A stretch of 64,000 nt of DNA. Origin: Actinomadura rudentiformis. GTDB taxonomy: Bacteria; Actinomycetota; Actinomycetes; Streptosporangiales; Streptosporangiaceae. A program made the translations under genes and the position numbers. Shown here piece after piece: positions 21,879 to 40,227 of the stretch (position 1 is the stretch's first letter; every line of letters starts with the position of its first letter). The notes beneath the pieces are model-generated. The model was not told the origin of the DNA and ran no database searches. It saw only the letters and a program-made list of their open reading frames with translations. Location of the stretch: assembly GCF_008923185.1 (NCBI RefSeq), contig NZ_WBMT01000011.1:62001-126000 (forward strand), given 5' to 3'.

Positions 21879-22224
21879 CTGGCGATCACCTCGTTCACGC
21901 GCGCCGGCGTATGCCGGTCCGCCTGGGCCGCTCATGCTGAGCGAGCCGTGCGCCGATGCGCGCGGACGGCCGGGGGCGCGAACGCCGGCCAGCAGCACGC
22001 CGGCGGGTTTGCCGGTCTTGGTTGTCACATGACAGACGCTACGAGTGTGTCCGACAAGTCTGGCAGGGTCGACGATCCACCGTTGCCCGGTACAAATGTC
22101 CTGTTCGCTGGGCTCGCCGCCTGCCTCGTTCGACAGAAACTTTCGCCGTCCTGTCCCGGCAGGAGTCAACGAACCGCGTGCGAGGAGTCCCGTTCGAGCC
22201 TGTCCTGCGCTTTACTCGCCTGTG
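21879..22224. other. Divergent intergenic region, kinase / AAA+ gene
   Basis: 346 bp without a credible gene. It should hold both promoters. TGTCA-CA-TGACA (22023-22034) is a small inverted repeat about 145 bp upstream of the kinase. TACTCG at 22213-22218 lies six bases before the ATG of the AAA+ gene and may be its -10. Confidence 0.5.
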
Positions 22225-24942
22225 ATGGCATTGTTCGGCAGATCCCGCTCCCGCCCGGCGGGCACCGCGGCGCGGGATCTATTCGAGCGCCTGCGATGGC
22301 GTTACTTCCAGGTCCAGGCGGGACTGCGCTTCCTGGGCGGGCTGCTGCTGCTCACCCTGGCGGTGGCAGGGGCCGTGCTGCTGAACGGACCGGTGCTCAG
22401 CGCCGCCGCGTTCACCCTCATCCTGCTGATCGTGGTGCATCTGACCCTGCGATCGCCGGCGGGCATGGCCGTGGTCTCGGTGATCGTGGGCTGGCTGGTG
22501 GTGTCGGTTCCGCTCGGCCATCTGTACCCAGGACATGAGGACCAGCGGCCCTACCTCAGCCCGTCTCTACTGCTCGCGCTCCTCGCTCTGCCTGTCGCGT
22601 TCGTGGCGCTGCGCCTGCGGGGGTACGCGCCGTGGCGCACGGCGTTGCTCGCCTTCGCCGCGGCCGGAATCGTCACGGCTGCGGCAGCCCATCCGCTACC
22701 GGACTTGCAGGTGCTGCCCGGCTGGCTGGCTGCGCTCGGCTTCCTGGCCTACCGATGGGACCAGGCGCGCCGTTCGGTGCCCGCCGAGGCGTACGAGACG
22801 GGATGGGTGCAGGAACAGTCCAACCCGGGAGGCGACGGCATGACGGCGCCCGGCAAGCCTCGTCCCGATCGCCGCACCGGTGCAGGGTCGCGCAAAGGGC
22901 CGAAGCCTGGCGTTGGTCCGCGTTCGGGCGGCGGCTCCGGGAAGGGAAGCGGGCCAGGTCCGGGTGGCGGCTCAGGCGCGGGTGGCGGCTCTGGCACTGG
23001 TGGCGGTTCAGGCATGGGCGGCGGGCTGGAGGGCGCGTCTGGAGGAAGCTCAGGGAGCGGGTCCGGCTCGGGTAGGAGTGGCGGGACGCTGGACTCCGCC
23101 GGGGTGCCTGTGGCCACGCAGGCGGCGTACGAGGCGCGCGCGGCGGCGCAGGCTCAGGAGCTCGGCGGCGGTGAGGGGTCGCGGGACGACGGCACGCAGG
23201 ACGGACGTGCCGAGGACCAGCCGGAGATCTCGGTCGCCGAGGCGCTCGCCGAGCTGACCGGCATGATCGGGCTGGAGCCGGTGAAGCGCCAGGTGCGTTC
23301 CATCGCCGCGTCCATCGAGGCCGCACACCTGCGAGCCGCCGCCGGTGTGCCGACCGAGAAGCCCATGCGGCACTTCGTCTTCGTCGGCCCGTCGGGCACC
23401 GGCAAGACCAGCGTGGCCCGCGTGCTGGCCAAGATCTTCTACGCCTTCGGGCTGCTGCCGACGCCGAACCTGGTGGAGGCGCACCGCGCCGACCTCGTCG
23501 GGGAGTTCCTCGGCGCCACCGCGATCAAGACCAACCAGCTCGTGGACTCGGCGATCGGCGGCGTGCTGTTCATCGACGAGGCGTACGCGCTGGTCAACTC
23601 CGGCGAAGGGCAGCCGGACCGGTTCGGCAACGAGGCCGTGCAGACCCTCCTCAAGCGCGCCGAGGACGACCGCGAGAATCTGGTCATCATCCTCGCCGGG
23701 TACGAGGCGCAGATGACCGAGTTCCTCGACTCCAACCCCGGGCTGGCCTCGCGGTTCGGCACGCGCGTGCATTTCCCCTCGTACCGGACGGCCGAGCTCC
23801 TGTGCATCGCCGACTACCACACCGGCCTGCGCGACGACCGGCTCGACGACGAGGCCCGGCGCCGCCTGGGTGCGCGTTTCGAGGAGATCGAACGGCGCGG
23901 CATCGTCGACGAACTCGGCAACGGGCGGTTCGTGCGTTCGCTGACCGAGGCCGCCGCCCGCGCGCGTGACGTCCGCGTGGTCGAGGCATCCGACCGGCCC
24001 ACCGCCGACGACCTGGTCACACTGCGCACCGAGGACGTCGAGACCGCGTTCGCCGAGCTCACCGAGCGGTACCGCGGGTACGCCGAGACGCCGACCCTCG
24101 ACGAGGCCCTCGGCTCCCTCGACGCGATGATCGGGCTGTCCGCCGTCAAACGCCAGGTGCGTGAGATCGCCGCGCAGCTCCAGGTCGCCCAGATGCGCGC
24201 CGAACAGGGCCTGGTCACCCGCTCGCCGACCCGCCACTTCGTCTTCACCGGGCCGCCCGGCACGGGCAAGACCACCGTCGCCCGCGTCCTCGGCCGTATC
24301 TTCGCGGCGCTCGGCCTCCTGGCGCGGCCCTCCGTCGTCGAGGCCCAGCGCGCCGATCTCGTCGGCGACCACCTCGGCGCCACCGCCCTCAAGACCAACA
24401 AGGTCATCGACTCGGCGCTCGGCGGCGTGCTCTTCGTCGACGAGGCGTACGCGCTGAGCAATCCCGGCTACAGCGGCGGCGACGCGTTCGGTGCCGAGGC
24501 CGTCCAGACGCTTCTCAAACGAGCCGAGGACGACCGCGACCGCCTCGTCGTCGTCCTGGCGGGATATGACCGGGACATGGAGCGCTTCCTGGCCTCCAAC
24601 CCGGGCCTGGGCTCGCGCTTCGACGTGCGGGTCGACTTCCCCTCGTACGGCCCGGACGAGCTCCTCCAGATCGCCCAGCTGATCGCCGAGCAGGAAGGTG
24701 ACCGCTGGGAGGAACAGGCGCTGGACGACCTGGCGCTCGTCTTCCAGCGTGCCTGCGGCACGGGACGCATCGACGAACTGGGCAATGGCCGCTTCGCGCG
24801 TTCTCTCTACGAGAAGGCCTGCGCCTCACGTGCCGTACGAGCAGCCCAGCTGGGCCCGGCCGCCACCACTGCCGACCTGACCATCCTCACCACCGACGAC
24901 GTCCGCGCCGCATTCGCAGAGGTGACACACCGCCTCGGCTGA
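22225..24942 (+). CDS. Membrane-anchored double AAA+ ATPase (CbxX/CfqX, EccA-like)
   Basis: From ATG 22225 the protein has 905 residues. Residues about 25-190 carry five or six hydrophobic helices; a Gly/Ser-rich linker of about 100 residues follows (about 205-305, repeated GGGSG units). Then come two CbxX/CfqX AAA+ modules: Walker A GPSGTGKTSVARVLAKIF with Walker B GVLFIDEAYAL, and GPPGTGKTTVARVLGRIF with GVLFVDEAYAL. Both keep the sensor and arginine regions. EccA of type VII secretion has one such domain and no membrane part, and no other esx gene is nearby. The role is therefore open: unfoldase, complex remodelling or secretion support. Confidence 0.9.
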   Translation: MALFGRSRSRPAGTAARDLFERLRWRYFQVQAGLRFLGGLLLLTLAVAGAVLLNGPVLSAAAFTLILLIVVHLTLRSPAGMAVVSVIVGWLVVSVPLGHLYPGHEDQRPYLSPSLLLALLALPVAFVALRLRGYAPWRTALLAFAAAGIVTAAAAHPLPDLQVLPGWLAALGFLAYRWDQARRSVPAEAYETGWVQEQSNPGGDGMTAPGKPRPDRRTGAGSRKGPKPGVGPRSGGGSGKGSGPGPGGGSGAGGGSGTGGGSGMGGGLEGASGGSSGSGSGSGRSGGTLDSAGVPVATQAAYEARAAAQAQELGGGEGSRDDGTQDGRAEDQPEISVAEALAELTGMIGLEPVKRQVRSIAASIEAAHLRAAAGVPTEKPMRHFVFVGPSGTGKTSVARVLAKIFYAFGLLPTPNLVEAHRADLVGEFLGATAIKTNQLVDSAIGGVLFIDEAYALVNSGEGQPDRFGNEAVQTLLKRAEDDRENLVIILAGYEAQMTEFLDSNPGLASRFGTRVHFPSYRTAELLCIADYHTGLRDDRLDDEARRRLGARFEEIERRGIVDELGNGRFVRSLTEAAARARDVRVVEASDRPTADDLVTLRTEDVETAFAELTERYRGYAETPTLDEALGSLDAMIGLSAVKRQVREIAAQLQVAQMRAEQGLVTRSPTRHFVFTGPPGTGKTTVARVLGRIFAALGLLARPSVVEAQRADLVGDHLGATALKTNKVIDSALGGVLFVDEAYALSNPGYSGGDAFGAEAVQTLLKRAEDDRDRLVVVLAGYDRDMERFLASNPGLGSRFDVRVDFPSYGPDELLQIAQLIAEQEGDRWEEQALDDLALVFQRACGTGRIDELGNGRFARSLYEKACASRAVRAAQLGPAATTADLTILTTDDVRAAFAEVTHRLG

Positions 24943-31599: not shown

Positions 31600-32454
31600 T
31601 CAGGTCGCCGGGGTGAAGCGGAGTCGCTGGCCGGGCCTCAGCTGGGCGGCCAGGGGGATGTCGGCCGCGCGGACGACCGCCACCACAGGGTAGCCGCCGG
31701 TCGTCGGGTGATCGGCCAGAAAGATGATCGGCAGGCCGCTGGGCGGCACCTGGAGGGCGCCGGTCACCATGCCCTCGCTGCCCAGTTCGCCGTCACGGGC
31801 GCGGAGGAGCTTCGGGCCGTCGAGGCGTACGCCCACGCGGTTGCTGTCCGGCGTCACCTCGTACGGCTGCCCGCACAGCACGGAGATCGCGTCGGGCACG
31901 AACCAGTCGTCGCGGGGGCCCGGCAGGATCCGCAGTATGGGGACATCGGGCGGCTGCGCCACGGGAGCGACGTCCACCCCGATGTCACTCAATCCGGACG
32001 ACCCACCGATCGGCAAGCGGTCACCGGCCGAGAGCGGAGCGGGGCCGAGTCCGGAGAGGAGGTCCGTGGACCGGCTGCCGAGCACCGGCTCGACCCCGAG
32101 CCCGCCGCGTACGGCCAGGTAGGTGCGCAGGCCGCGGGCGGGAAGCCCCACCTCGACGAGGCTGTCCGGCGGGACCCGGCAGGGCGCGTTCATGCCGTGT
32201 GCGCGTCCGTTGATGAGGAGCGGGGCCGGGGCGCCGGAGACGGCGATCCATGCGGCACGGTGGAAGCGGAAGGCGGCGCCGCCGAGGGTGAGTTCGACGC
32301 CCGCCTCACTCTCGGGGTTGCCGACGAGACGGTTGGCCAGCCGCAGCGCGCGGCCGTCGGCGGCTCCTGAGCATGGCACGCCCAGATGCGCGTGGCCGGG
32401 ACGGCCGAGGTCCTGCACGGTCGCCAGCGGCCCGGGTCGGACGACCTCGATCAC
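31600..32454 (-). CDS. pxpC: 5-oxoprolinase subunit C (biotin-dependent carboxyltransferase family)
   Basis: PxpC with PxpA and PxpB opens 5-oxoproline to glutamate with ATP. The 284-residue protein begins IEVVRPGPLATVQDLGRPGHAHLGVP, the diagnostic N-terminus of this family, and has GSRSTDLLSGLGPAPLSAGD, GPRDDWF, YEVTPDSNRVGVRLDG and a final IIFLADHPTTGGYPVVAVV. GTG 32454 overlaps the pxpB stop by four bases. It is the last gene of a minus-strand operon. Length and motifs are normal. Confidence 0.95.
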   Translation of the reverse strand: MIEVVRPGPLATVQDLGRPGHAHLGVPCSGAADGRALRLANRLVGNPESEAGVELTLGGAAFRFHRAAWIAVSGAPAPLLINGRAHGMNAPCRVPPDSLVEVGLPARGLRTYLAVRGGLGVEPVLGSRSTDLLSGLGPAPLSAGDRLPIGGSSGLSDIGVDVAPVAQPPDVPILRILPGPRDDWFVPDAISVLCGQPYEVTPDSNRVGVRLDGPKLLRARDGELGSEGMVTGALQVPPSGLPIIFLADHPTTGGYPVVAVVRAADIPLAAQLRPGQRLRFTPAT

Positions 32455-33092
32455 CGCGCATCCTCCGGGGAGCGGACGAAGCGGACGCGGGTACCGGGCT
32501 GGAGGAGGGACGGCGGGTCGCGCGTCACGTCCCACAGCCGCAGGTCCGTACGGCCGAGGAGCCGCCAGCCGCCCGGTGACGCGGACGGGTAGACGGCGGC
32601 GTACGGCCCGGCGATCGCGACCGACCCCGCGGGTACGGAGGTGCGCGGCGACTCCCGGCGCGGGACGTGCAGGGCGGGGTCGAGGCCGGTGAGGTATCCG
32701 AAGCCAGGCGAGAACCCGAGATACGCCACGGTGTACGCGGCGGACGCGTGGCGTTCGATCACTTCGTTCCGCGAGAGGCCCGTGAGCTGGGCGACCTCGT
32801 CGACGTCCGTGCCGTCGTACACCACCGGGATCTCCACGGCGGGAGCCTCACCGGCCGCCGATTCCGGAAGGGGCAGCTCCGGCAGCCGGGCGGCGAGCCG
32901 GCTGAGATCGCAGCGGGCCGGGTCGATGACGACCAGGACCGTGCGTTCGCCGGGAATGACGTCGAGCACGCCGGTCACGGTCGCGTCCTGGCCCGTGGCC
33001 GCCTTGCGCACGGCGGCGTGGAGACGGTGTGCGGTCTCCAGATCGCCGGTCTCGACCAGAAGCGCGGTGTCGCCCGCCCTCCGGACCCTCAC
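32451..33092 (-). CDS. pxpB: 5-oxoprolinase subunit B
   Basis: The 213-residue carboxyltransferase domain (subdomain 1 type) has GDTALLVE, a central EIPVVYDGTDVDEVAQLTGLS, AYTVAYLGFSPGFGYL (signature of PxpB/KipI) and PRTSVPAGSVAIAGPYAAVYPSASPGGWRLLG. GTG 33092 overlaps the pxpA stop, and the pxpB stop overlaps the pxpC start, each by four bases. The three subunits should be made in equal amounts by coupled translation. Confidence 0.95.
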   Translation of the reverse strand: MRVRRAGDTALLVETGDLETAHRLHAAVRKAATGQDATVTGVLDVIPGERTVLVVIDPARCDLSRLAARLPELPLPESAAGEAPAVEIPVVYDGTDVDEVAQLTGLSRNEVIERHASAAYTVAYLGFSPGFGYLTGLDPALHVPRRESPRTSVPAGSVAIAGPYAAVYPSASPGGWRLLGRTDLRLWDVTRDPPSLLQPGTRVRFVRSPEDAR

Positions 33093-33841
33093 GCGAAGGG
33101 CTCCAGCGCGACGCCCGCCTCCGCCAGCGCGGCCCGGACGGACCTGGCGAGCTCGACGGCGCCGGGGGTGTCGCCGTGAACGCAGATCGAGCGGGCCCGC
33201 AGCGGGACCTCGGCGCCGCCGACCGCGACGACCACCCCGTCGACCGCCATCCGGACGGCCCGTTCGACGACGACGGCGGCTTCATGGATGACCGCTCCCG
33301 GCTCGCGCCGCGACACCAGCCTGCCCTCCGGCGTGTAGGCGCGGTCGGCGAAGCATTCGGCGACGACCGTGAGGCCGTCGGCGACCTCGTGCACCGCCGA
33401 GCCCGGCAAGGTGAGGAGCGGCAGCGACGGGTCGTACGCGCGGACCGCGTCGGTGACCGCGCGAGCCTGTGCCGGATCACCCGCGATGCGGTTGTAGAGG
33501 GCGCCGTGGGGCTTGACGTAGGCGACGCGGCCGCCCTCGACACGGGCGATCCCGTCGAGCGCCGCGAGCTGGTAGAGGATCTCGGCCGTCAGTTCCGGCG
33601 CCGCGACGTCCATTTCGCGGCGGCCGAACCCGGCCAGATCCCGGTAGGACACCTGCGCGCCGATCGTCACCCCGCGGGCGACCGCGCCAGCGCACACCCG
33701 CCGCATGATGAGCGGATCGCCGGCGTGGAAGCCGCACGCCACGTTCGCGCTGGTGATCACGTCGAGCAGGGCGAGGTCGTCGCCGAGCTCCCAGATGCCG
33801 AATCCCTCACCCAGGTCGGCGTTGATGTCCATGACGGGCAT
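33089..33841 (-). CDS. pxpA: 5-oxoprolinase subunit A (LamB/YcsF family)
   Basis: The 250-residue metal-type TIM barrel starts MPVMDINADLGEGFGIWELGDD, the family signature. NVACGFHAGDPLIMRR, VSYRDLAGFGRREMDV and VKPHGALYNRIAGDP follow, and then FADRAYTPEGRLVSRREPGAVI. It supplies the amidohydrolase part of the PxpABC complex. ATG 33841 is used; ATG 33832 (MDINADLG) is the alternative. It lies 59 bp downstream of the YcsI-type gene. Confidence 0.95.
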   Translation of the reverse strand: MPVMDINADLGEGFGIWELGDDLALLDVITSANVACGFHAGDPLIMRRVCAGAVARGVTIGAQVSYRDLAGFGRREMDVAAPELTAEILYQLAALDGIARVEGGRVAYVKPHGALYNRIAGDPAQARAVTDAVRAYDPSLPLLTLPGSAVHEVADGLTVVAECFADRAYTPEGRLVSRREPGAVIHEAAVVVERAVRMAVDGVVVAVGGAEVPLRARSICVHGDTPGAVELARSVRAALAEAGVALEPFA

Positions 33842-33900
33842 GTCCCAGATCTATCACCCGGCCGCACCGGCGCCGCGCCCGAGTGCTCGGCGTGGTGTGG

Positions 33901-34698
33901 TCACAGTGGGGCGGCGTCCGAGTGGTCGGTGATGAACATCCGGCCCGGCGAGTGGGTGACGGCGAACGCCGGCTTGCTCGCCATCACGACCGCCTGGGGA
34001 GTGACCCCGCACGCCCAGAAGACCGGCACGTCGTCCGGCGCGAACTCGACCGCGTCACCGAAGTCGGGCCGGTCGAGATCGGCGATTCCCAGCTCCGCGG
34101 GGTCGCCGACGTGGACCGGCGGTCCGTGCATCTCCGGATGGCGCGCGCTCACCTCGATGGCGGTGGAGACGAGCGCGGGCGGGACCGGGCGCATCGACAC
34201 CACGAGGGGCCCGGAGAGCCGTCCGGCGGGAACGCACGGCCGGTTGGTCACGTACATCGACACGTTCCGGCCCTGGCCTATGTGCCGTACCGGCACGCCC
34301 GCAGCCGACAGCGCCGCCTCGAAGCTGAAGCTGCACCCGAACAGGAAGCCGATCAGGTCGGGCCGCCAGTACTCGGTGGCGTCGGCCACCTCGGCCAGGA
34401 GCGTGCCGTTCTCGTAGATCCGGTAGGCGGGCAGGTCAGTGCGCAGATCCGCGGCCGGTGCGACGCCGCGGGGATGCGGGTCGCCGGGGTCGGTCACGTC
34501 CAGCAGCGGGCACGGACCGGGATTGCGATGCGCGAACAGCAGCGCGTCGAACGCGAGCTCACGTGGCACGGCGAGCAGGTTCGCCTGCGCGTATCCGCGG
34601 CACCAGCCGCTCGTCGTCGGCGTCGTGGCGCCCGTACGGAACAGGGCGCGGGCCTGCGTCGGCGTCAGAACCGACGGTTGGTCGAGGGCCTGGCTCAT
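33901..34698 (-). CDS. Putative hydro-lyase / D-glutamate cyclase (YcsI, DUF1445 family)
   Basis: The 265-residue protein carries the DUF1445 marks: ARALFRTGATTPTTSGWCRGYAQANL, FLFGCSFSFEAAL, GRNVSMYVTNRPC, GPLVVSMRPVPP, HGPPVHVGDPAELGI and a final VFWACGVTPQAVVMASKPAFAVTHSPGRMFITD. The related mitochondrial enzyme converts D-glutamate to 5-oxo-D-proline, which fits its place directly upstream of pxpABC: cyclisation followed by ring opening. ATG 34698 was chosen; upstream frame to 35058 overlaps another gene. Whether this protein is a cyclase or a hydro-lyase is not settled. Confidence 0.9.
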   Translation of the reverse strand: MSQALDQPSVLTPTQARALFRTGATTPTTSGWCRGYAQANLLAVPRELAFDALLFAHRNPGPCPLLDVTDPGDPHPRGVAPAADLRTDLPAYRIYENGTLLAEVADATEYWRPDLIGFLFGCSFSFEAALSAAGVPVRHIGQGRNVSMYVTNRPCVPAGRLSGPLVVSMRPVPPALVSTAIEVSARHPEMHGPPVHVGDPAELGIADLDRPDFGDAVEFAPDDVPVFWACGVTPQAVVMASKPAFAVTHSPGRMFITDHSDAAPL

Positions 34699-34726: not shown

Positions 34727-35095
34727 TTAGACGGTTTCCTCGCGCAGATCCGCCACGTCGGCACGCGGCGCCCACGCCTGGTAGACACCGCGGTCGAACG
34801 TTTCGAGGCCGAGCCGTTCGGCCACCGGCGCCTTGCCTCCCGTGTACTCCACCCGGAGCCAGGTCTGGTGCTCGCCGAGCACCACGAAGGGCTCGCCCTG
34901 CCACGTGCAGAACGTGTTGACGTACGAGAGGTGCTCCAGCTCCGCAGCCGGCACCACCCGCACGAAGCGACCCGGCGCCGCCTCGGTGAAACCGTCCGCC
35001 GGGGCCGCCGAGTAAAGCCGCACTTCGGCCCCATCCGGGCTCGCCTCGTACTCCGCACCGCGCCAGCCCGCGTAGTAGCCGTGCCGGAAGCTCAT
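34727..35095 (-). CDS. Small hypothetical protein, partner of the proline-rich gene upstream
   Basis: The 122-residue acidic soluble protein starts MSFRHGYYAGWRGAEYEASP and has a central HLSYVNTFCTWQGEPFVVLG-like segment (LSYVNTFCTWQGEPFVVL), then WLRVEYTGGKAPVAERLGL and FDRGVYQAWAPRADV. I recognise this pattern as an actinobacterial family of unknown function. The start overlaps the stop of the 619-residue gene by four bases, so it is translated with it. A small soluble protein coupled to a large modular one could be an immunity or chaperone partner, but nothing in the sequence proves this. Confidence 0.75.
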   Translation of the reverse strand: MSFRHGYYAGWRGAEYEASPDGAEVRLYSAAPADGFTEAAPGRFVRVVPAAELEHLSYVNTFCTWQGEPFVVLGEHQTWLRVEYTGGKAPVAERLGLETFDRGVYQAWAPRADVADLREETV

Positions 35096-36951
35096 ACGCC
35101 CTCCACTCGCACCCAGCGGCGGCGGTCCGCGTCGTATCCGGCGACCAACGCCTCCACTCCGGACCGGTGGATCCGGTACATCTCCGCACCGTGCGGCAGG
35201 CGCTGGCTGTCGACCTTGAACTCCGGGATCGCGGGCCCGTCACCCGGCGCGTACCCCGACCCCGGGAACGGCGCCTTCTCGATCACCCAGCCGCCCGGAA
35301 TGATCCCCATGCTCCACTCGTCGATCCCGCCCAGTGGCCGCCGGAACAACGACGGCTTCACGGCCGGCCACCGGATCACGTAGATGTCCTCGTCCCTGGC
35401 CGAGAACGGCGACCCTTCGTAGACCAGGCCAAGCGCGCGCACGAGCAGCTGTGGAGTATTCAGCTCCGCCACGTCCTGCAGCCGATGCACATACCCGGCG
35501 ACCCACTCGTAGCCGCCGTCGAGATAGTGCGCCACATGCTCCGGCCGGACCACCTTCTGCATCACGACGAAGTCCGCATCGACAGGCGGTGCCGTAGATG
35601 GAGACCCCGGTACGGGCGGCTGCGGTGGCACGAAGTCTCGCCCATATGGCGGTGCGCTCTCTCGCATAGGCGGGGGCGCTATCTCCTGCACCGACGATGC
35701 GGCGCCCTCCCGCACGGGCGGTGGCGCGCCCTCCTGTATTGGTGGTGGCGGGCTTTCCTGTACGGCGGGTGATGCGCCCTCTTGCACGGGCGGTGCTGAG
35801 GCCTGCTGCGAGGACGGCGGTGCGTCTCGCACAGGCGATGGTGCGCTCTCTTGCACCGACGATGCCGCGAACTCTCGCAGGGGCGGTAGCGCGCTCCCGC
35901 GTGAAGATGGCGCGTTCTCCTGAACGAGTCGCGGCGCCGTCTCCCGAATAGGCGGCGTGGTTTCCCGCACGGACGGTGGCGCGCTTTCCGGCACGGGCGG
36001 TGACGCGGCTTCTTGAAGGGGCGGGGCGAGGTCTCGTACGGGTGGCGGCGCGGCTTCTCGTACGGCAGGTGCGGGCTCCGGTGCCGCTTGAGGCGCAGGA
36101 GCAGGTGCCTTTTGCTTGGCTGACTTAAGGAGGGCGGCGTCCAGATAGGCGGCGCTGGGAAGCCCGGGGTTGACGGCGAGCTGCCACTCGGGGCGAGGCC
36201 AGTTGCCGGCGAGTTCGGTGAGGGTGGCGGGCCGGTGATGGACCGCTTGCCCTCGCAGCGAACGATCCATCGCGTCCGGCGACGTGAAGGCCAGGACGAA
36301 CGTGCCGTCGCCGAACTGGGCGGTCGCGTAGTGATGCCCGGCGCGCGACGGGTCACCGGGGACCGGGAGATGGAGGACCGCCCCGGCGAGCAGATCCAGA
36401 TAACCGCGCTGGTCACCGCGATCACGGGCCTCGGCGAGCGCGGCCTCCAGGTCGGCGTCGGAGGCCTCTGCCTCCTGCTCCTCGGGGGCCGACTCGTCGG
36501 GGATGGCCAGCGGGATGCCCAGGCCGGGCAGCGCGAGAGGCCCTCCGTCAGGGCCGCTGCGGCTCGCCTGGTAGACGAGCTCCAGCGGGGAGCCCACCCC
36601 GTGCACGTCCCGGAACGCCGCCGCCATCCGGCCCGCCATCTGCTCGCAGGTGGCGGAGAGGTCGTCGAGGGGACGCCCGGCGCGGTCGGCGACGGAGGCA
36701 CGGTGCCACCAGTTGAGCCGGTTGCGATCGTTCGGCGGACGCCAGCCCAGGTCGGTCAGCAGACTCTCCTGGCGCGCGTTCAGCGGGCTGGGCAGGAAGG
36801 CGCTGCTGACAGCCTCGGCGTCAAGCGCGTCCTGCGCGCGCATCACCTGAACGTAGGGCAGGCCACCGGGTTTCTGCAGGATCAGGAACGACTGGACCGG
36901 CAACCTCATCAGCTCGATGGCCAGCCGCTTGGCGAAGTCCTCCCAGTCCAC
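35092..36951 (-). CDS. Large protein: TY-Chap/SseB-like N-terminus, proline-rich repeats, unknown C-terminal domain
   Basis: The protein has 619 residues. Residues about 1-115 form a first domain (WEDFAKRLAIELMRLPVQSFLIL, LGWRPP, NWWHR) resembling TY-Chap-type chaperone domains; about 165-275 is SseB-like (YLDLLAGAVLHLPVP, FVLAFTSPDAM, WQLAVNPGLPSAAYLDA). About 290-445 is a low-complexity chain of roughly ten-residue units around APPPVREGA / SSVQESAP. The final about 165 residues fold separately (VQEV-like start, GLVYEGSPFSARDEDIYVIRWP, GGWVIEKAPFPGSGYAPGDG, YRIHRSGVEALVAGYDADRRRW). It is paralogous to the next upstream gene. Starts at GTG 36951. Function unknown. Confidence 0.75.
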   Translation of the reverse strand: MDWEDFAKRLAIELMRLPVQSFLILQKPGGLPYVQVMRAQDALDAEAVSSAFLPSPLNARQESLLTDLGWRPPNDRNRLNWWHRASVADRAGRPLDDLSATCEQMAGRMAAAFRDVHGVGSPLELVYQASRSGPDGGPLALPGLGIPLAIPDESAPEEQEAEASDADLEAALAEARDRGDQRGYLDLLAGAVLHLPVPGDPSRAGHHYATAQFGDGTFVLAFTSPDAMDRSLRGQAVHHRPATLTELAGNWPRPEWQLAVNPGLPSAAYLDAALLKSAKQKAPAPAPQAAPEPAPAVREAAPPPVRDLAPPLQEAASPPVPESAPPSVRETTPPIRETAPRLVQENAPSSRGSALPPLREFAASSVQESAPSPVRDAPPSSQQASAPPVQEGASPAVQESPPPPIQEGAPPPVREGAASSVQEIAPPPMRESAPPYGRDFVPPQPPVPGSPSTAPPVDADFVVMQKVVRPEHVAHYLDGGYEWVAGYVHRLQDVAELNTPQLLVRALGLVYEGSPFSARDEDIYVIRWPAVKPSLFRRPLGGIDEWSMGIIPGGWVIEKAPFPGSGYAPGDGPAIPEFKVDSQRLPHGAEMYRIHRSGVEALVAGYDADRRRWVRVEGV

Positions 36952-36972
36952 TTTTCGACCGTACCCGGAACG

Positions 36973-38526
36973 TCACTCGGTCCAAGGGGCAGGCACGGCG
37001 TCGGTGCGGACCGGAGTCCACGATCCGCCGATCGCGTCGTAGACGGCCACGGGGACGGCCCTCTCGTTCTCGTCTCCCTCGCCGTTCCAACGCCAGAGCC
37101 GTGTGCCCTGGGGGGCGCGGACAGGGACCACAGGACCCGACAGCACCGCACCAGGCGGGGGGGCCGGTTCCGGAGCCACCGGTCCCGGAGACGACGCGCC
37201 GGGGGACATCGGTCCCTGGGGCGTCAGCCCGGGCTGTGCGGGCGCGGGAGACACCGAGCCGAGCTGACTGGGGCCGGGACCCGGACCGGGGCCCGGGCCC
37301 GAACCGGGACTGGAACCGGAACCGGGAGTCCCTGCACCAGGCTGAGGGGTCTCAGGAAACGCGGAACGGGGCCGAGCGGCCTCCGGGATAGGCGAGCCAG
37401 GCTGAGGGGCCTCCGGGAAAGGAGGGCCGGGCTGTGGGGCTCCTGGGAAGGCCGCGCCGGGCTGTGGGGCTCCGGGCGACGCCTGACCCAGCTGCGCGGG
37501 ATTCGGCGGGACGGAGCCCGGCTTGGGCTCTGGGGCGATGGGGGCCGACAGCATGGCGGACGCCCCTGGACGGCCTGATGGAACGGGTGGCTGCTCAGGC
37601 GGAGCGACGGCCGGAGCGGCGGCCGGAGGGAGAGCGGTCGGCCGCTGGGAGGCGAGGCGGGTGACGGCGGTGGCGTCGAGGTGGACCTCGCTTGGCAGGC
37701 CCGCGTTGATGGCGAGCTGCCACGTCGGGTCCGGCCAGGCGGCGGCGAGCTGACCGAAGGAGGAGCGGCGGTAGAGCCCCGCGGCCCGGTCGCCGACCGA
37801 GCGGGCGAGGGCCTGCGGGGAGGTGAAGACCATGAGGTACGTGCCGGAGCCGATGGTGGTCGTCGGGAACTCGGCGTACTCCGGATCTTCGACGGCCGCG
37901 CCGGTGGCGGGCAGGACGAGGTCCGCCGCGAGCAGCAGCTGGAAGTACGTCGCGTGGTCGGCGCGCTGCTTGGCCTCGGTGAGCTGCACCTCCAGCTCTT
38001 CGGGATCCATGGCCGGGGCGGTCACGTTCTCGATGACCGACCGCCGCCGCATGCTGATCCGGCTCGGGTCGGCGGCCTCGATGCCGAAGTCCAGCAGTTC
38101 GATCAGGCCGCTGCCGTGCCGGTGGAACGACTCGTACACCAGGTCGGACGGGCGCCGCACGCCCTGCACGTCGCGCAGCGCGGTCACCATCACGTCGGCG
38201 AGGCGGGCGTAGTCGCCCGGGGTCACCGTGTGGATCCCGGTGCCCGACTCGGGCAGCTCAGTCCACCAGTTGCGCGGTGACGGCTCGGCGGGCGGGCGCC
38301 ACCCGGCCTCGCTCATCACCTCTTCGTCGGCGAGCGTGAGCAGCAGCGGCCCGTCGAGGAAGTTGTTGCTGACGGCCTCGGCGTACAGCCGGTCCGGCTC
38401 CCGCATCGCCTGGACGTAGTGGCGGCTCTCATCGCGCTCCCGCACGATGAGGATGGTGTCCCTCTCGAGGACCGCCAGCTCGCGTCCAAGGTGCCGGGCG
38501 AACTCGGACCACTCCAACAAGATCAC
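36973..38526 (-). CDS. Paralogue: TY-Chap/SseB-like N-terminus, Pro/Gly-rich region, short C-terminal module
   Basis: The protein has 517 residues. The first about 285 parallel the next gene: WSEFARHLGRELAVLERDTILIV, AGWRPPAEPSPRNWWTELP, then an SseB-like part (YFQLLLAADLVLPA, YLMVFTSPQALA, WQLAINAGLPSEVHLDA). About 300-470 is Pro/Gly/Ser-rich with repeated PGAPQPGAAFPG-like units and a GPGPGPG run. The last about 45 residues (LWRWNGEGDENERAVPVAVYDAIGGSWTPVR) align by eye with the end of the 619-residue protein. GTG 38526 has GGTAGGGA upstream. The two genes are 21 bp apart and clearly arose by duplication. Confidence 0.75.
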   Translation of the reverse strand: MILLEWSEFARHLGRELAVLERDTILIVRERDESRHYVQAMREPDRLYAEAVSNNFLDGPLLLTLADEEVMSEAGWRPPAEPSPRNWWTELPESGTGIHTVTPGDYARLADVMVTALRDVQGVRRPSDLVYESFHRHGSGLIELLDFGIEAADPSRISMRRRSVIENVTAPAMDPEELEVQLTEAKQRADHATYFQLLLAADLVLPATGAAVEDPEYAEFPTTTIGSGTYLMVFTSPQALARSVGDRAAGLYRRSSFGQLAAAWPDPTWQLAINAGLPSEVHLDATAVTRLASQRPTALPPAAAPAVAPPEQPPVPSGRPGASAMLSAPIAPEPKPGSVPPNPAQLGQASPGAPQPGAAFPGAPQPGPPFPEAPQPGSPIPEAARPRSAFPETPQPGAGTPGSGSSPGSGPGPGPGPGPSQLGSVSPAPAQPGLTPQGPMSPGASSPGPVAPEPAPPPGAVLSGPVVPVRAPQGTRLWRWNGEGDENERAVPVAVYDAIGGSWTPVRTDAVPAPWTE

Positions 38527-38631: not shown

Positions 38632-40227
38632 TCACTCAGGTGGGGGTTCGTGACGCAACACACGCAAGGATTTCACCAGCTCAGCATCATCGTCGCCGCA
38701 CCGGTCGAGAACGTCGATCAACTTGTGCAGGATCTCGTGCCGTTCGTAGCCGACGTCCAGCAGTGCTTGCGCGGTCTCCCACAGTTGCGGCGGATCGCCG
38801 TTCCACAGGCGTTCGGTCAGCCGTTCGTGCGAGTCGAGGTGGTCGGCGGGGGCACCGGGGTGCTCGAACTCGAGCATGACGCGCCGGTCGTCGGGGTCCG
38901 ACGGATCGAGGGTGGACAGGTCGATCGAGCCGTGCCGCCCGGAGAGCCGGTGCTTGCCCGACAGGAACGGCAGCGCGAACGCCCGGCGCGGGAGCGCCTC
39001 CAGGTCGCCGTCGGGCAGCAGCCGGTCGACGAGCTCGCGCTCCAGGCCGAACGCCGAGGGGTCGCGGTACGCCTCGGCGAACTTGGTCGTGGCGTCCCAG
39101 ATCGCGTCGAGCGTGGCACGGACGCCCTCCTCGGGCAGCCCGGTCTGCCTGCCCGCCCAGCGCACCCAGGCCGCCAGCACGTGCGGCACGGCCTCCTGCT
39201 CGGTCGGTGACAGCAGGACCTTGCGGGGCAGCCAGTCCAGCAGGAACATCTCGCTCTTGATCGGGCTGACCCGCAGCGGCCGGCCGAAGTCGTGCGCGCA
39301 CCCGTAGTCGATGATCCGGTCGACGCAGCGGCTGGCGGCGGACCGGTCGGAGAGGTCCTCGGCCTCGTCGGAGGCCAGGAAGCTCACCGCGATCTTCGCG
39401 CGGCGGTCCTTGCCGTAGGTCTCGGGGCGCGGTGGCCGCCCGCCCGGTGGCAGCGCGCGCACGCGGGCCCGGAGGAACGCGTGGTACGAGCCGAAGTTCT
39501 CGTTGACCGGCGGGTCGATGGTCTCGTTGGTGAACTCCAGCGCGCGCTGGAGCACCGCCCTGGTGTCGCGCGGATCGAGCTGCTCGAACCGCATCAGCGG
39601 ATTGGTGCGGCCCTCCCGGCGGCAGTGGTCGAGAAGCGTGCCGACCTGCGACGACACCCACGCGTCGCGGACCATCCCGAAGGCGGGCGGGCCGCCGTTG
39701 CCGGTGGGGGCGGCCTTGTTACGGTCCACCAGGACCACGAGCGCGTGCCGTTCCGCGCCGCCGTAGGTGTACGTACAGATGATCGAATCCTGGTCTCCGT
39801 AGACGTCGCGGGAGACGTAGCACTCCTCGTGCGCGACCGCCCCGACCCGGTCGGCCCAGCCTGGCCGGGCCACACCGCGGTCCATGAGCGCCAGCGCGGC
39901 GCGTTCGGCCTTGGCCTGCTGCCGGGTGGTGCCGAGATAGGAGATGCCGGTCAGCAGCGCCAGCGCGGCCGGGGTGCCGGCCTGCCCGGCATGGTCGACC
40001 AGGGCCTCGCCGATGACCTCTTCGACCTCTCCCTCGCCGATGCGGTGCCCCCACCAGGAGCCGAGGATCTCGCTCACGATCAGCTCGGCGTCCAGCGGGC
40101 TGCGCACCGCCAGCAGTTCCCGGGCGTGCCGCAGCATGTCGTCGAAGATCGCGGAGACCTCGTCCGAGGGCGGCCTGCCGTCCCCCGCGGAATCCCCGTG
40201 GGGATGGCGGCGGCTGCGGGAACTCAC
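38632..40227 (-). CDS. Conserved hypothetical protein, 531 residues
   Basis: This is a large soluble, mostly helical protein with no recognised domain. Notable parts are an N-terminal helical region (FDDMLRHARELLAVRSPLDAELIVSEILGSWWG), a central strand-rich part (ICTYTYGGAERHALVVLVDRNKA), LDWLPRKVLLSPTEQEAVPHVLAAWVRWAGRQTGLPEE, and a C-terminal helical block with ERLWNGDPPQLWETAQALLDVGYERHEILHKLI. The last element resembles C-terminal segments of some plant-repeat or SEC-C-associated proteins, but weakly. It precedes the proline-rich pair on the same strand, 105 bp away, and may be functionally linked. Confidence 0.7.
   Translation of the reverse strand: MSSRSRRHPHGDSAGDGRPPSDEVSAIFDDMLRHARELLAVRSPLDAELIVSEILGSWWGHRIGEGEVEEVIGEALVDHAGQAGTPAALALLTGISYLGTTRQQAKAERAALALMDRGVARPGWADRVGAVAHEECYVSRDVYGDQDSIICTYTYGGAERHALVVLVDRNKAAPTGNGGPPAFGMVRDAWVSSQVGTLLDHCRREGRTNPLMRFEQLDPRDTRAVLQRALEFTNETIDPPVNENFGSYHAFLRARVRALPPGGRPPRPETYGKDRRAKIAVSFLASDEAEDLSDRSAASRCVDRIIDYGCAHDFGRPLRVSPIKSEMFLLDWLPRKVLLSPTEQEAVPHVLAAWVRWAGRQTGLPEEGVRATLDAIWDATTKFAEAYRDPSAFGLERELVDRLLPDGDLEALPRRAFALPFLSGKHRLSGRHGSIDLSTLDPSDPDDRRVMLEFEHPGAPADHLDSHERLTERLWNGDPPQLWETAQALLDVGYERHEILHKLIDVLDRCGDDDAELVKSLRVLRHEPPPE

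What the first reader, a model, noticed from the sequence alone, without database searches (positions are those of the whole stretch)
34727..38526. Duplicated proline-rich modular genes with a small coupled partner: possible undescribed toxin- or secretion-like module
Two paralogues (517 and 619 residues) share TY-Chap/SseB-like N-terminal domains. Each then has a 150-170-residue Pro-rich repeat stretch and a C-terminal module; the end of the 517-residue protein looks like a shortened version of the 619-residue protein's C-terminus (VYDAIGGSWTPVR against GYDADRRRWVRV). The 619-residue gene is translationally coupled (4-bp overlap) to a 122-residue soluble protein. A conserved head, disordered linker, variable tail and small partner is the layout of polymorphic effectors, but no known toxin motif is visible.
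Basis: partly seen in the sequence, partly recalled or inferred. Interest (0 to 1): 0.6.

Follow-up and report, generated by a model that had tools for sequence, protein, structure and literature searches.

The report
Chaperone-headed, toxin-like gene with coupled partner
A bacterial gene joins two chaperone-like domains to a tail that is probably an NAD-cutting or NAD-using enzyme and is followed by a small overlapping partner gene; the same tail-partner pair arms secreted toxins in other actinomycetes, but here it is fixed and inherited like a core gene.

Summary
The 619- and 517-residue proteins are paralogues with TY-Chap3 and SseB domains and Pro-rich linkers. The 619-residue gene overlaps the 122-residue gene by 4 bp.

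The last ~160 residues belong to no Pfam or NCBIfam family found. AlphaFold2 models them well (pLDDT 91.7). In a VIA-align second look the top 29 of 47 rows come from ADP-ribosyltransferase (ART)-fold enzymes, best a streptococcal NADase, but Z is only 3.3-5.4. The partner is all-beta, SH3-like.

Elsewhere the same domain ends T7SS export proteins, with a partner homologue beside the tail in 12 of 12 outgroup loci checked. In 7 of 7 testable Micromonosporaceae loci a WXG100 pair lies upstream.

Yet in this genus tails do not vary: tail in all 36 genus genomes searched, partner in 65 of 65, divergence like neighbouring genes. So it is an effector-immunity-like pair that looks domesticated. NAD use, inhibition and secretion are inferred.

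The parts
34727..35095 (-). 122-aa partner; predicted all-beta, tandem SH3-like protein; candidate inhibitor (immunity) of the tail domain
   Evidence: ORF; AF2 pLDDT 94.6; SH3-like rows; weak SH3_3 profile hits in 5 of 14 homologues (best 0.00046); found downstream of the tail in 80 of 80 named loci
35092..36951 (-). 619-aa protein: TY-Chap3 + SseB + Pro-rich linker + ART-fold-like tail
35095..35589 (-). C-terminal (tail) domain, residues 455-619; candidate pocket residues K466 (tail K12), R527 (R73), E577 (E123)
   Evidence: A3 alignment (51 of 81 available rows): R73 and E123 invariant, K12 at least 90%; pattern by architecture; numbering
36127..36450 (-). SseB domain of the 619-aa protein (residues 168-275)
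   Evidence: Pfam PF07179
36577..36951 (-). TY-Chap3 domain of the 619-aa protein (residues 1-125)
   Evidence: Pfam PF22552
35587..36111 (-). Pro-rich linker (residues 281-455)
   Evidence: repeats
36973..38526 (-). 517-aa paralogue: TY-Chap3 + SseB + Pro-rich stretch + probable remnant (last ~35 residues) of the tail domain
38632..40227 (-). 531-aa protein without a family match, conserved neighbour at this locus; relation to the pair unknown
   Evidence: no Pfam/NCBIfam/PADLOC match; same cluster in 37 of 80 named loci and the window

Best explanation
The 619-aa protein and its 122-aa partner are an effector-and-inhibitor-like pair. The tail is probably a divergent ADP-ribosyltransferase-fold domain that binds and cleaves or uses NAD+, with a Lys (K466) on the first strand and a Glu (E577) at the start of a late strand. 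The partner, a tandem SH3-like protein translated by stop/start overlap, probably binds and silences it until it is needed or exported. The two head domains are predicted peptide-binding chaperone domains; the Pro-rich stretch is a flexible tether. The tail family is shared with type VII (ESX) secretion toxins of other actinomycetes, and in Micromonosporaceae the SseB-headed gene sits near WXG100 genes, so the pair was probably derived from, or still works with, ESX secretion. In Actinomadura it is a fixed, vertically inherited, purifying-selected, mostly two-copy system, not a polymorphic weapon. Shown: sequences, domains, coupling, conservation, T7SS export domains on homologues. Inferred: fold class (from a model and weak fold matches), NAD chemistry, inhibition by the partner, export.
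For: Tail model pLDDT 91.7; rows 1-29 of 47 in VIA-align come from ART-fold enzymes (classed by me from their names), first other row Z 2.7. E123 is Glu in 97 of 98 SseB- or TY-Chap3-headed unique aligned rows with at least 8 of 14 positions, the other gapped. Homologues end proteins with T7SS export domains: L066 WXG100_2 1.2e-22; L181, L183, L185 WXG100_2; L182 T7SS_signal 3.3e-34. A partner homologue lies in or next to the tail gene in 12 of 12 outgroup loci checked, by profiles made without that locus's rows or, for L183's separate 143-aa protein, only by the close-relative profile (8.9e-6). WXG100 pair upstream in 7 of 7 Micromonosporaceae loci with at least 4 kb held (three of the seven supplied seeds of that profile; Pfam confirms L150). 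Partner downstream of the tail in 80 of 80 named loci; 4-bp overlap in 65 of 82. Median dN/dS 0.17 (tail) and 0.25 (partner). The Tne5 toxin is an ART-fold NAD(P) glycohydrolase with a proposed Lys/Glu pocket, nearest structure a NAD glycohydrolase (4KT6), relatives in T7SS LXG toxins (PMC13285283, passages and sections 9-10).
Against: Foldseek gives no significant PDB match (best sensible row RhsP2 toxin, E 1.6); all VIA Z are under 8. Profile searches of Pfam and PDB sequences find no ART. The canonical R-S-E triad is absent, and in Tne5 itself the Glu was not critical. The window protein has no WXG/LXG export domain match and no WXG100-like gene was found in the window; the genome's WXG100 matches are on other contigs. 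Some locus-1 copies lack the FxGxG segment (for example L055, L060, L111, L195), L195 the Glu too. In some genomes tail and partner are one polypeptide (L235, L192), odd for a freely diffusing immunity protein. Tail-partner distances correlate no better (0.87) than tail-LamB/YcsF neighbour (0.88); partial r is 0.35.
Confidence: 0.5

Rival explanations
1. Intracellular conflict or stress switch, not exported: the chaperone heads sense modified or phage proteins and release an NAD-depleting tail from its SH3-like inhibitor, as in abortive infection.
For: TY-Chap3 and SseB were predicted as peptide-binding chaperones of ADP-ribose-centred host conflict systems (PMC9503650, section 31 read). No export domain match on the window protein. 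Fixed, vertical inheritance.
Against: No ARG, macro or Nudix domain among the 15 window proteins scanned. No PADLOC match for five proteins. WXG100 genes near the Micromonosporaceae copies and T7SS export domains on homologues point to secretion.
Confidence: 0.25
2. Domesticated, catalytically dead ART-like module used as a structural or peptide-binding part of an ESX-associated chaperone; the partner is a constitutive subunit.
For: Natural tail-partner fusions. Glu lost in 4 of 5 fusions without SseB and replaced by Gln in 10 headless rows; the copy behind L185's toxin, a fusion, has Ile. FxGxG segment lost in some locus-1 copies. Core-gene-like divergence.
Against: The candidate pocket residues stay nearly invariant in SseB-headed copies, which a dead scaffold would not need.
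Confidence: 0.2
3. One reading: polymorphic effector with exchangeable tails.
For: The tail is on different heads in other families.
Against: Of 30 head loci (window included), 20 show the same tail (two cut by the locus end), 2 only the remnant and 8 none in the stretch held; other tail types were not searched for in those 8. Within the genus the tail is constant.
Confidence: 0.05

Closest known systems
Tne5 / Tni5 (ART-fold NAD(P) glycohydrolase toxin and immunity protein, PMC13285283)
   Same: ART-like fold prediction; Lys and Glu proposed in the pocket; a NAD glycohydrolase as nearest structure; downstream immunity gene; relatives on T7SS LXG toxins
   Different: No sequence comparison was made here; heads here are TY-Chap3/SseB; pair fixed in the genus; partner predicted SH3-like
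TNT (Ntox40) NADase toxins and their immunity proteins
   Same: ART toxin domain coupled to an immunity gene (PMC9503650, passage) and found on T7SS toxins (PMC3482391, passage)
   Different: The tail matches no Pfam model as a family (that TNT is among Pfam's models is recalled) and has no DRxxG motif, which PMC3482391 lists for Ntox40
TY-Chap3 / SseB proteins of ADP-ribose (ARG) conflict systems (PMC9503650)
   Same: Same two head families
   Different: No ARG domain among the 15 window proteins scanned; an ART-like tail with partner on these heads is not described in the section read
WXG100_2 / T7SS_signal toxins of actinomycetes
   Same: Same tail family with a partner homologue beside it
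   Different: Export domain not found in the window protein; tail constant in the genus

Membership tests
ADP-ribosyltransferase fold superfamily | Split-sheet ART fold | tested here: inconclusive
   rows 1-29 of VIA-align come from ART-fold enzymes, Z 3.3-5.4; Foldseek E 1.6
Canonical R-S-E ADP-ribosyltransferase | R on strand 1, STS, ExE triad (recalled) | tested here: not met
   K at position 12 in strand 9-14, FxGxG, single E123
Tne5-like NADase | Lys on first strand and Glu pocket | tested here: inconclusive
   K12 and E123 in analogous strands by my reading and PMC13285283; no residue-level structural alignment
Tne5-like NADase | Sequence homology to Tne5 | not tested
   no Tne5 sequence was at hand
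NAD glycohydrolase | Cleaves NAD+ | not testable with these tools
   needs enzyme assay
T7SS polymorphic toxin | WXG/LXG/T7SS export domain in the polypeptide | tested here: not met
   window protein: only TY-Chap3 and SseB; met by homologues L066, L181, L182, L183, L185
T7SS polymorphic toxin | Variable C-terminal tails on a constant head | tested here: not met
   same tail in all 36 genus genomes searched
T7SS polymorphic toxin | Adjacent immunity gene | tested here: inconclusive
   adjacent partner in 80 of 80 named loci and 12 of 12 outgroup loci; protective function untested
TY-Chap3 and SseB families | Profile match above curated cut-off | tested here: met
   98.2 and 29.8 bits vs 27 and 21
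ARG-centred ADP-ribose conflict system | ARG gene in the neighbourhood | tested here: not met
   none among the 15 window proteins scanned with Pfam; other window ORFs were not scanned

The most novel reading that the evidence does not exclude
An undescribed ART-fold NAD-cleaving domain with its own tandem-SH3 inhibitor moved as a pair between T7SS toxins and chaperone-headed proteins and became a fixed core system of Actinomadura, a built-in NAD switch linked to ESX secretion, with a truncated sister protein acting as regulator.
Probability: 0.3. Interest if true: 0.7.

Novelty: new variant of a known kind. Interest (0 to 1): 0.5.

Why it matters
It would add an unnamed toxin-like domain and its inhibitor family to actinomycete type VII biology. 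It would also link the TY-Chap3/SseB heads, whose role is only predicted, to a concrete NAD-using partner, and give a testable case of a weapon turned into a core gene. The residues, partner and loci named here make a direct expression test simple.

Tried and rejected
Sequence-only recognition of the tail and the partner failed: Pfam, NCBIfam and PADLOC (only weak SH3 hits for the partner) and PDB by sequence (I take the PsaD, Src and antibody rows as spurious). Foldseek alone gave nothing significant (PDB, partner, viral). The viral contig scan confirmed no relative. The phylum sample with the broad profile gave 6 of 396 genomes; searches scored only 9 candidates a genome, so both are lower bounds. 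Mirror-tree test on 28 loci: no excess tail-partner correlation over neighbours in the raw values; partial r 0.35, reached by 0 of 2000 permutations. That the SH3-like partner binds the Pro-rich linker was considered and left as untested speculation. Literature: searches; the word TY-Chap3 was found only in PMC9503650; this says nothing about papers outside that library.

Limits: gene calls in my scripts come from a simple GC3-based caller that missed genes, for example the partner behind L187 (found). The genus is inferred as Actinomadura because one genus member's match (G017) has the coordinates of A. rayongensis (L092). One search leaves out of its table rows with fewer than 8 of 14 positions (remnants and split hits such as L060, L111, L195). 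One search keeps the best 80 of 194 confirmed stretches. The names of neighbour genes are from Pfam or my reading.
Full report
Observation. The ORFs are real and in the stated places. Pfam finds TY-Chap3 and SseB above cut-off in both large proteins and nothing in the 122-aa protein or in the last 165 residues. The two large proteins are paralogues (35% over 1-459). Linkers are 27-30% Pro. The stop of the 619-aa gene and the start of the 122-aa gene overlap by 4 bp. The short paralogue seems to end in what is left of the tail domain: in seven of 30 head loci a shorter head protein matches only about the last 33-37 profile positions; the window copy alone is weak and not clearly above shuffles with the close-relative profile.

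Distribution. In 59 genomes searched (own included) both tail and partner occur in the same 37: all 36 of the genus and one of the order. In 65 of 65 genus genomes the partner profile matches: 59 with two matches, 1 with three, 5 with one; a few of these matches are fragments. The second copy in the own genome is a 1620-aa protein with four SseB stretches, Pro-rich spacers and the tail, again with a partner downstream. In named genomes 80 of the best 80 loci (194 stretches confirmed) carry both, the partner within about 1.1 kb downstream. Coupling: 4-bp overlap in 65, other overlap or contact in 12, 1-30 nt in 4, more in 1 of 82 loci. Outside the genus it is patchy: 28 of 394 class genomes, 6 of 396 phylum genomes with the broad profile, both lower bounds; no viral contig relative.

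Homologues with other heads. In outgroup genomes the same domain is the C-terminus of proteins with type VII export domains: L066 (714 aa, WXG100_2 1.2e-22), L181 (1231 aa), L183 (1446 aa), L185 (892 aa) with WXG100_2, L182 (553 aa, T7SS_signal 3.3e-34). L181, L183 and L185 lie beside WXG100-like genes. Behind the toxins of L181, L182, L183 and L185 lies a further tail-partner fusion, and L184 has one behind a different toxin. L183 also encodes a lone TY-Chap3 protein (8.8e-26). In other genera of the same family the tail is a headless protein of about 150 aa; in the one such locus checked, L187, a partner ORF follows directly.

ESX link. In Paractinoplanes L150 the SseB-tail gene follows two WXG100 genes (2e-13, 7e-15), with an EccE match below cut-off nearby (0.007); in Micromonospora L124 a subtilase lies near. 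Two WXG100 matches lie upstream in L124, L133, L138, L146, L147, L148 and L150, that is in 7 of the 7 Micromonosporaceae loci with at least 4 kb held, of 12 found; the profile was seeded partly from L124, L148 and L150. None was found in the Actinomadura loci, some of them held only in part, nor in the 64-kb window. The own genome has WXG100 matches, but on contigs C49, C12 and C48, not on the window's contig C3.

Structure. The tail model is confident (pLDDT 91.7, pTM 0.86; 51 of 81 available rows). Foldseek gives nothing significant. The VIA-align second look lists, in rows 1-29 of 47, entries of ART-fold enzymes (Z 5.4 to 3.3; best 7wvh NADase complex, rmsd 3.6 over 120 residues) and the first other row at 2.7. 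The classing of rows as ART-fold is mine, from the entry names; in complexes I take the chain to be the enzyme. Every Z is below 8, where the tool warns that only a common arrangement may be meant, so I treat the fold as likely, not proven. The partner model (pLDDT 94.6) gives mostly single SH3-like or KOW-like matches (best Z 5.9 over 50 residues); a tandem SH3-like fold is my reading, backed by weak SH3_3 hits in 5 of 14 homologues.

Residues. Across unique aligned sequences with at least 8 of 14 chosen positions, E123 is Glu in 97 of 98 SseB- or TY-Chap3-headed rows (the other has a gap). Among rows without these heads, many of them cut at the locus end, it is Glu in 19, Gln in 10, and Ala, Gly, Ile in 1 each; among tail-partner ORFs without SseB it is Glu in 1, Val in 3, Tyr in 1. 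Of the five proteins with a T7SS export domain four have Glu and L066 has Ala; L186, without a recognised export domain, has Glu. The Ile row is the L185 copy that one search shows to be a fusion. Some locus-1 copies lack the FxGxG segment and L195 the Glu. So headed copies look active in most species, but the window-type locus is decaying in a few; the window copy is intact.

Evolution. Median dN/dS is 0.17 for the tail (132 pairs) and 0.25 for the partner (73 pairs), from 46 sequences and pairs above 85% identity. Mean protein distances (0.27, 0.29; 28 loci) are like those of two neighbouring genes (0.18, 0.27), and raw distance correlations are no higher between tail and partner (0.87) than with neighbours (0.83-0.89); a partial correlation of 0.35 remains. 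This speaks against arms-race diversification.

Mechanism. Best reading: an NAD-binding ART-like effector domain held by a co-translated SH3-like inhibitor and carried by chaperone heads, drawn from the ESX toxin pool and fixed in Actinomadura. The Tne5 toxin offers the closest worked example of this chemistry, with the caution that its Glu was not critical (PMC13285283, passages and sections 9-10). The heads were predicted as peptide-binding chaperones by the authors of PMC9503650 (passages and section 31). NAD use, inhibition and export are inferences.

Verdict. Observation confirmed; interpretation partly supported; a new variant of a known kind.

Noticed in passing
window 22045-24942 (+): 965-aa protein with two AAA stretches and AAA_lid_6. 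A protein alike by eye is in 45 of the 80 named loci, by their list those of the window type. Possible CbbX/EccA-type ATPase (recalled); relation to the pair unknown.
   Followed up: partly
window 31600-34698 (-): Carboxyltransferase subunit pair, LamB/YcsF and a D-glutamate cyclase-type gene directly downstream; a 5-oxoprolinase-like set (my reading), LamB/YcsF gene conserved in 41 loci.
   Followed up: partly
window 38632-40227 (-): 531-aa protein without a family match, upstream of the pair in 37 named loci and the window.
   Followed up: no
L187 5358-6193 (+): Headless ~150-aa tail homologue with Gln in place of the candidate Glu, followed by a partner ORF, beside a nitrilase-like gene (my reading).
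   Followed up: partly
L184 716-7180 (+): 1398-aa protein beside a WXG100-like gene, with a Gln_amidase toxin domain, followed by a tail-partner fusion with Val for the Glu: a different toxin next to a seemingly dead copy.
   Followed up: partly
L005 1063-4986 (-): Long ORF with a solute-binding-protein domain, same cluster near the second locus in 18 loci, L005 included.
   Followed up: no
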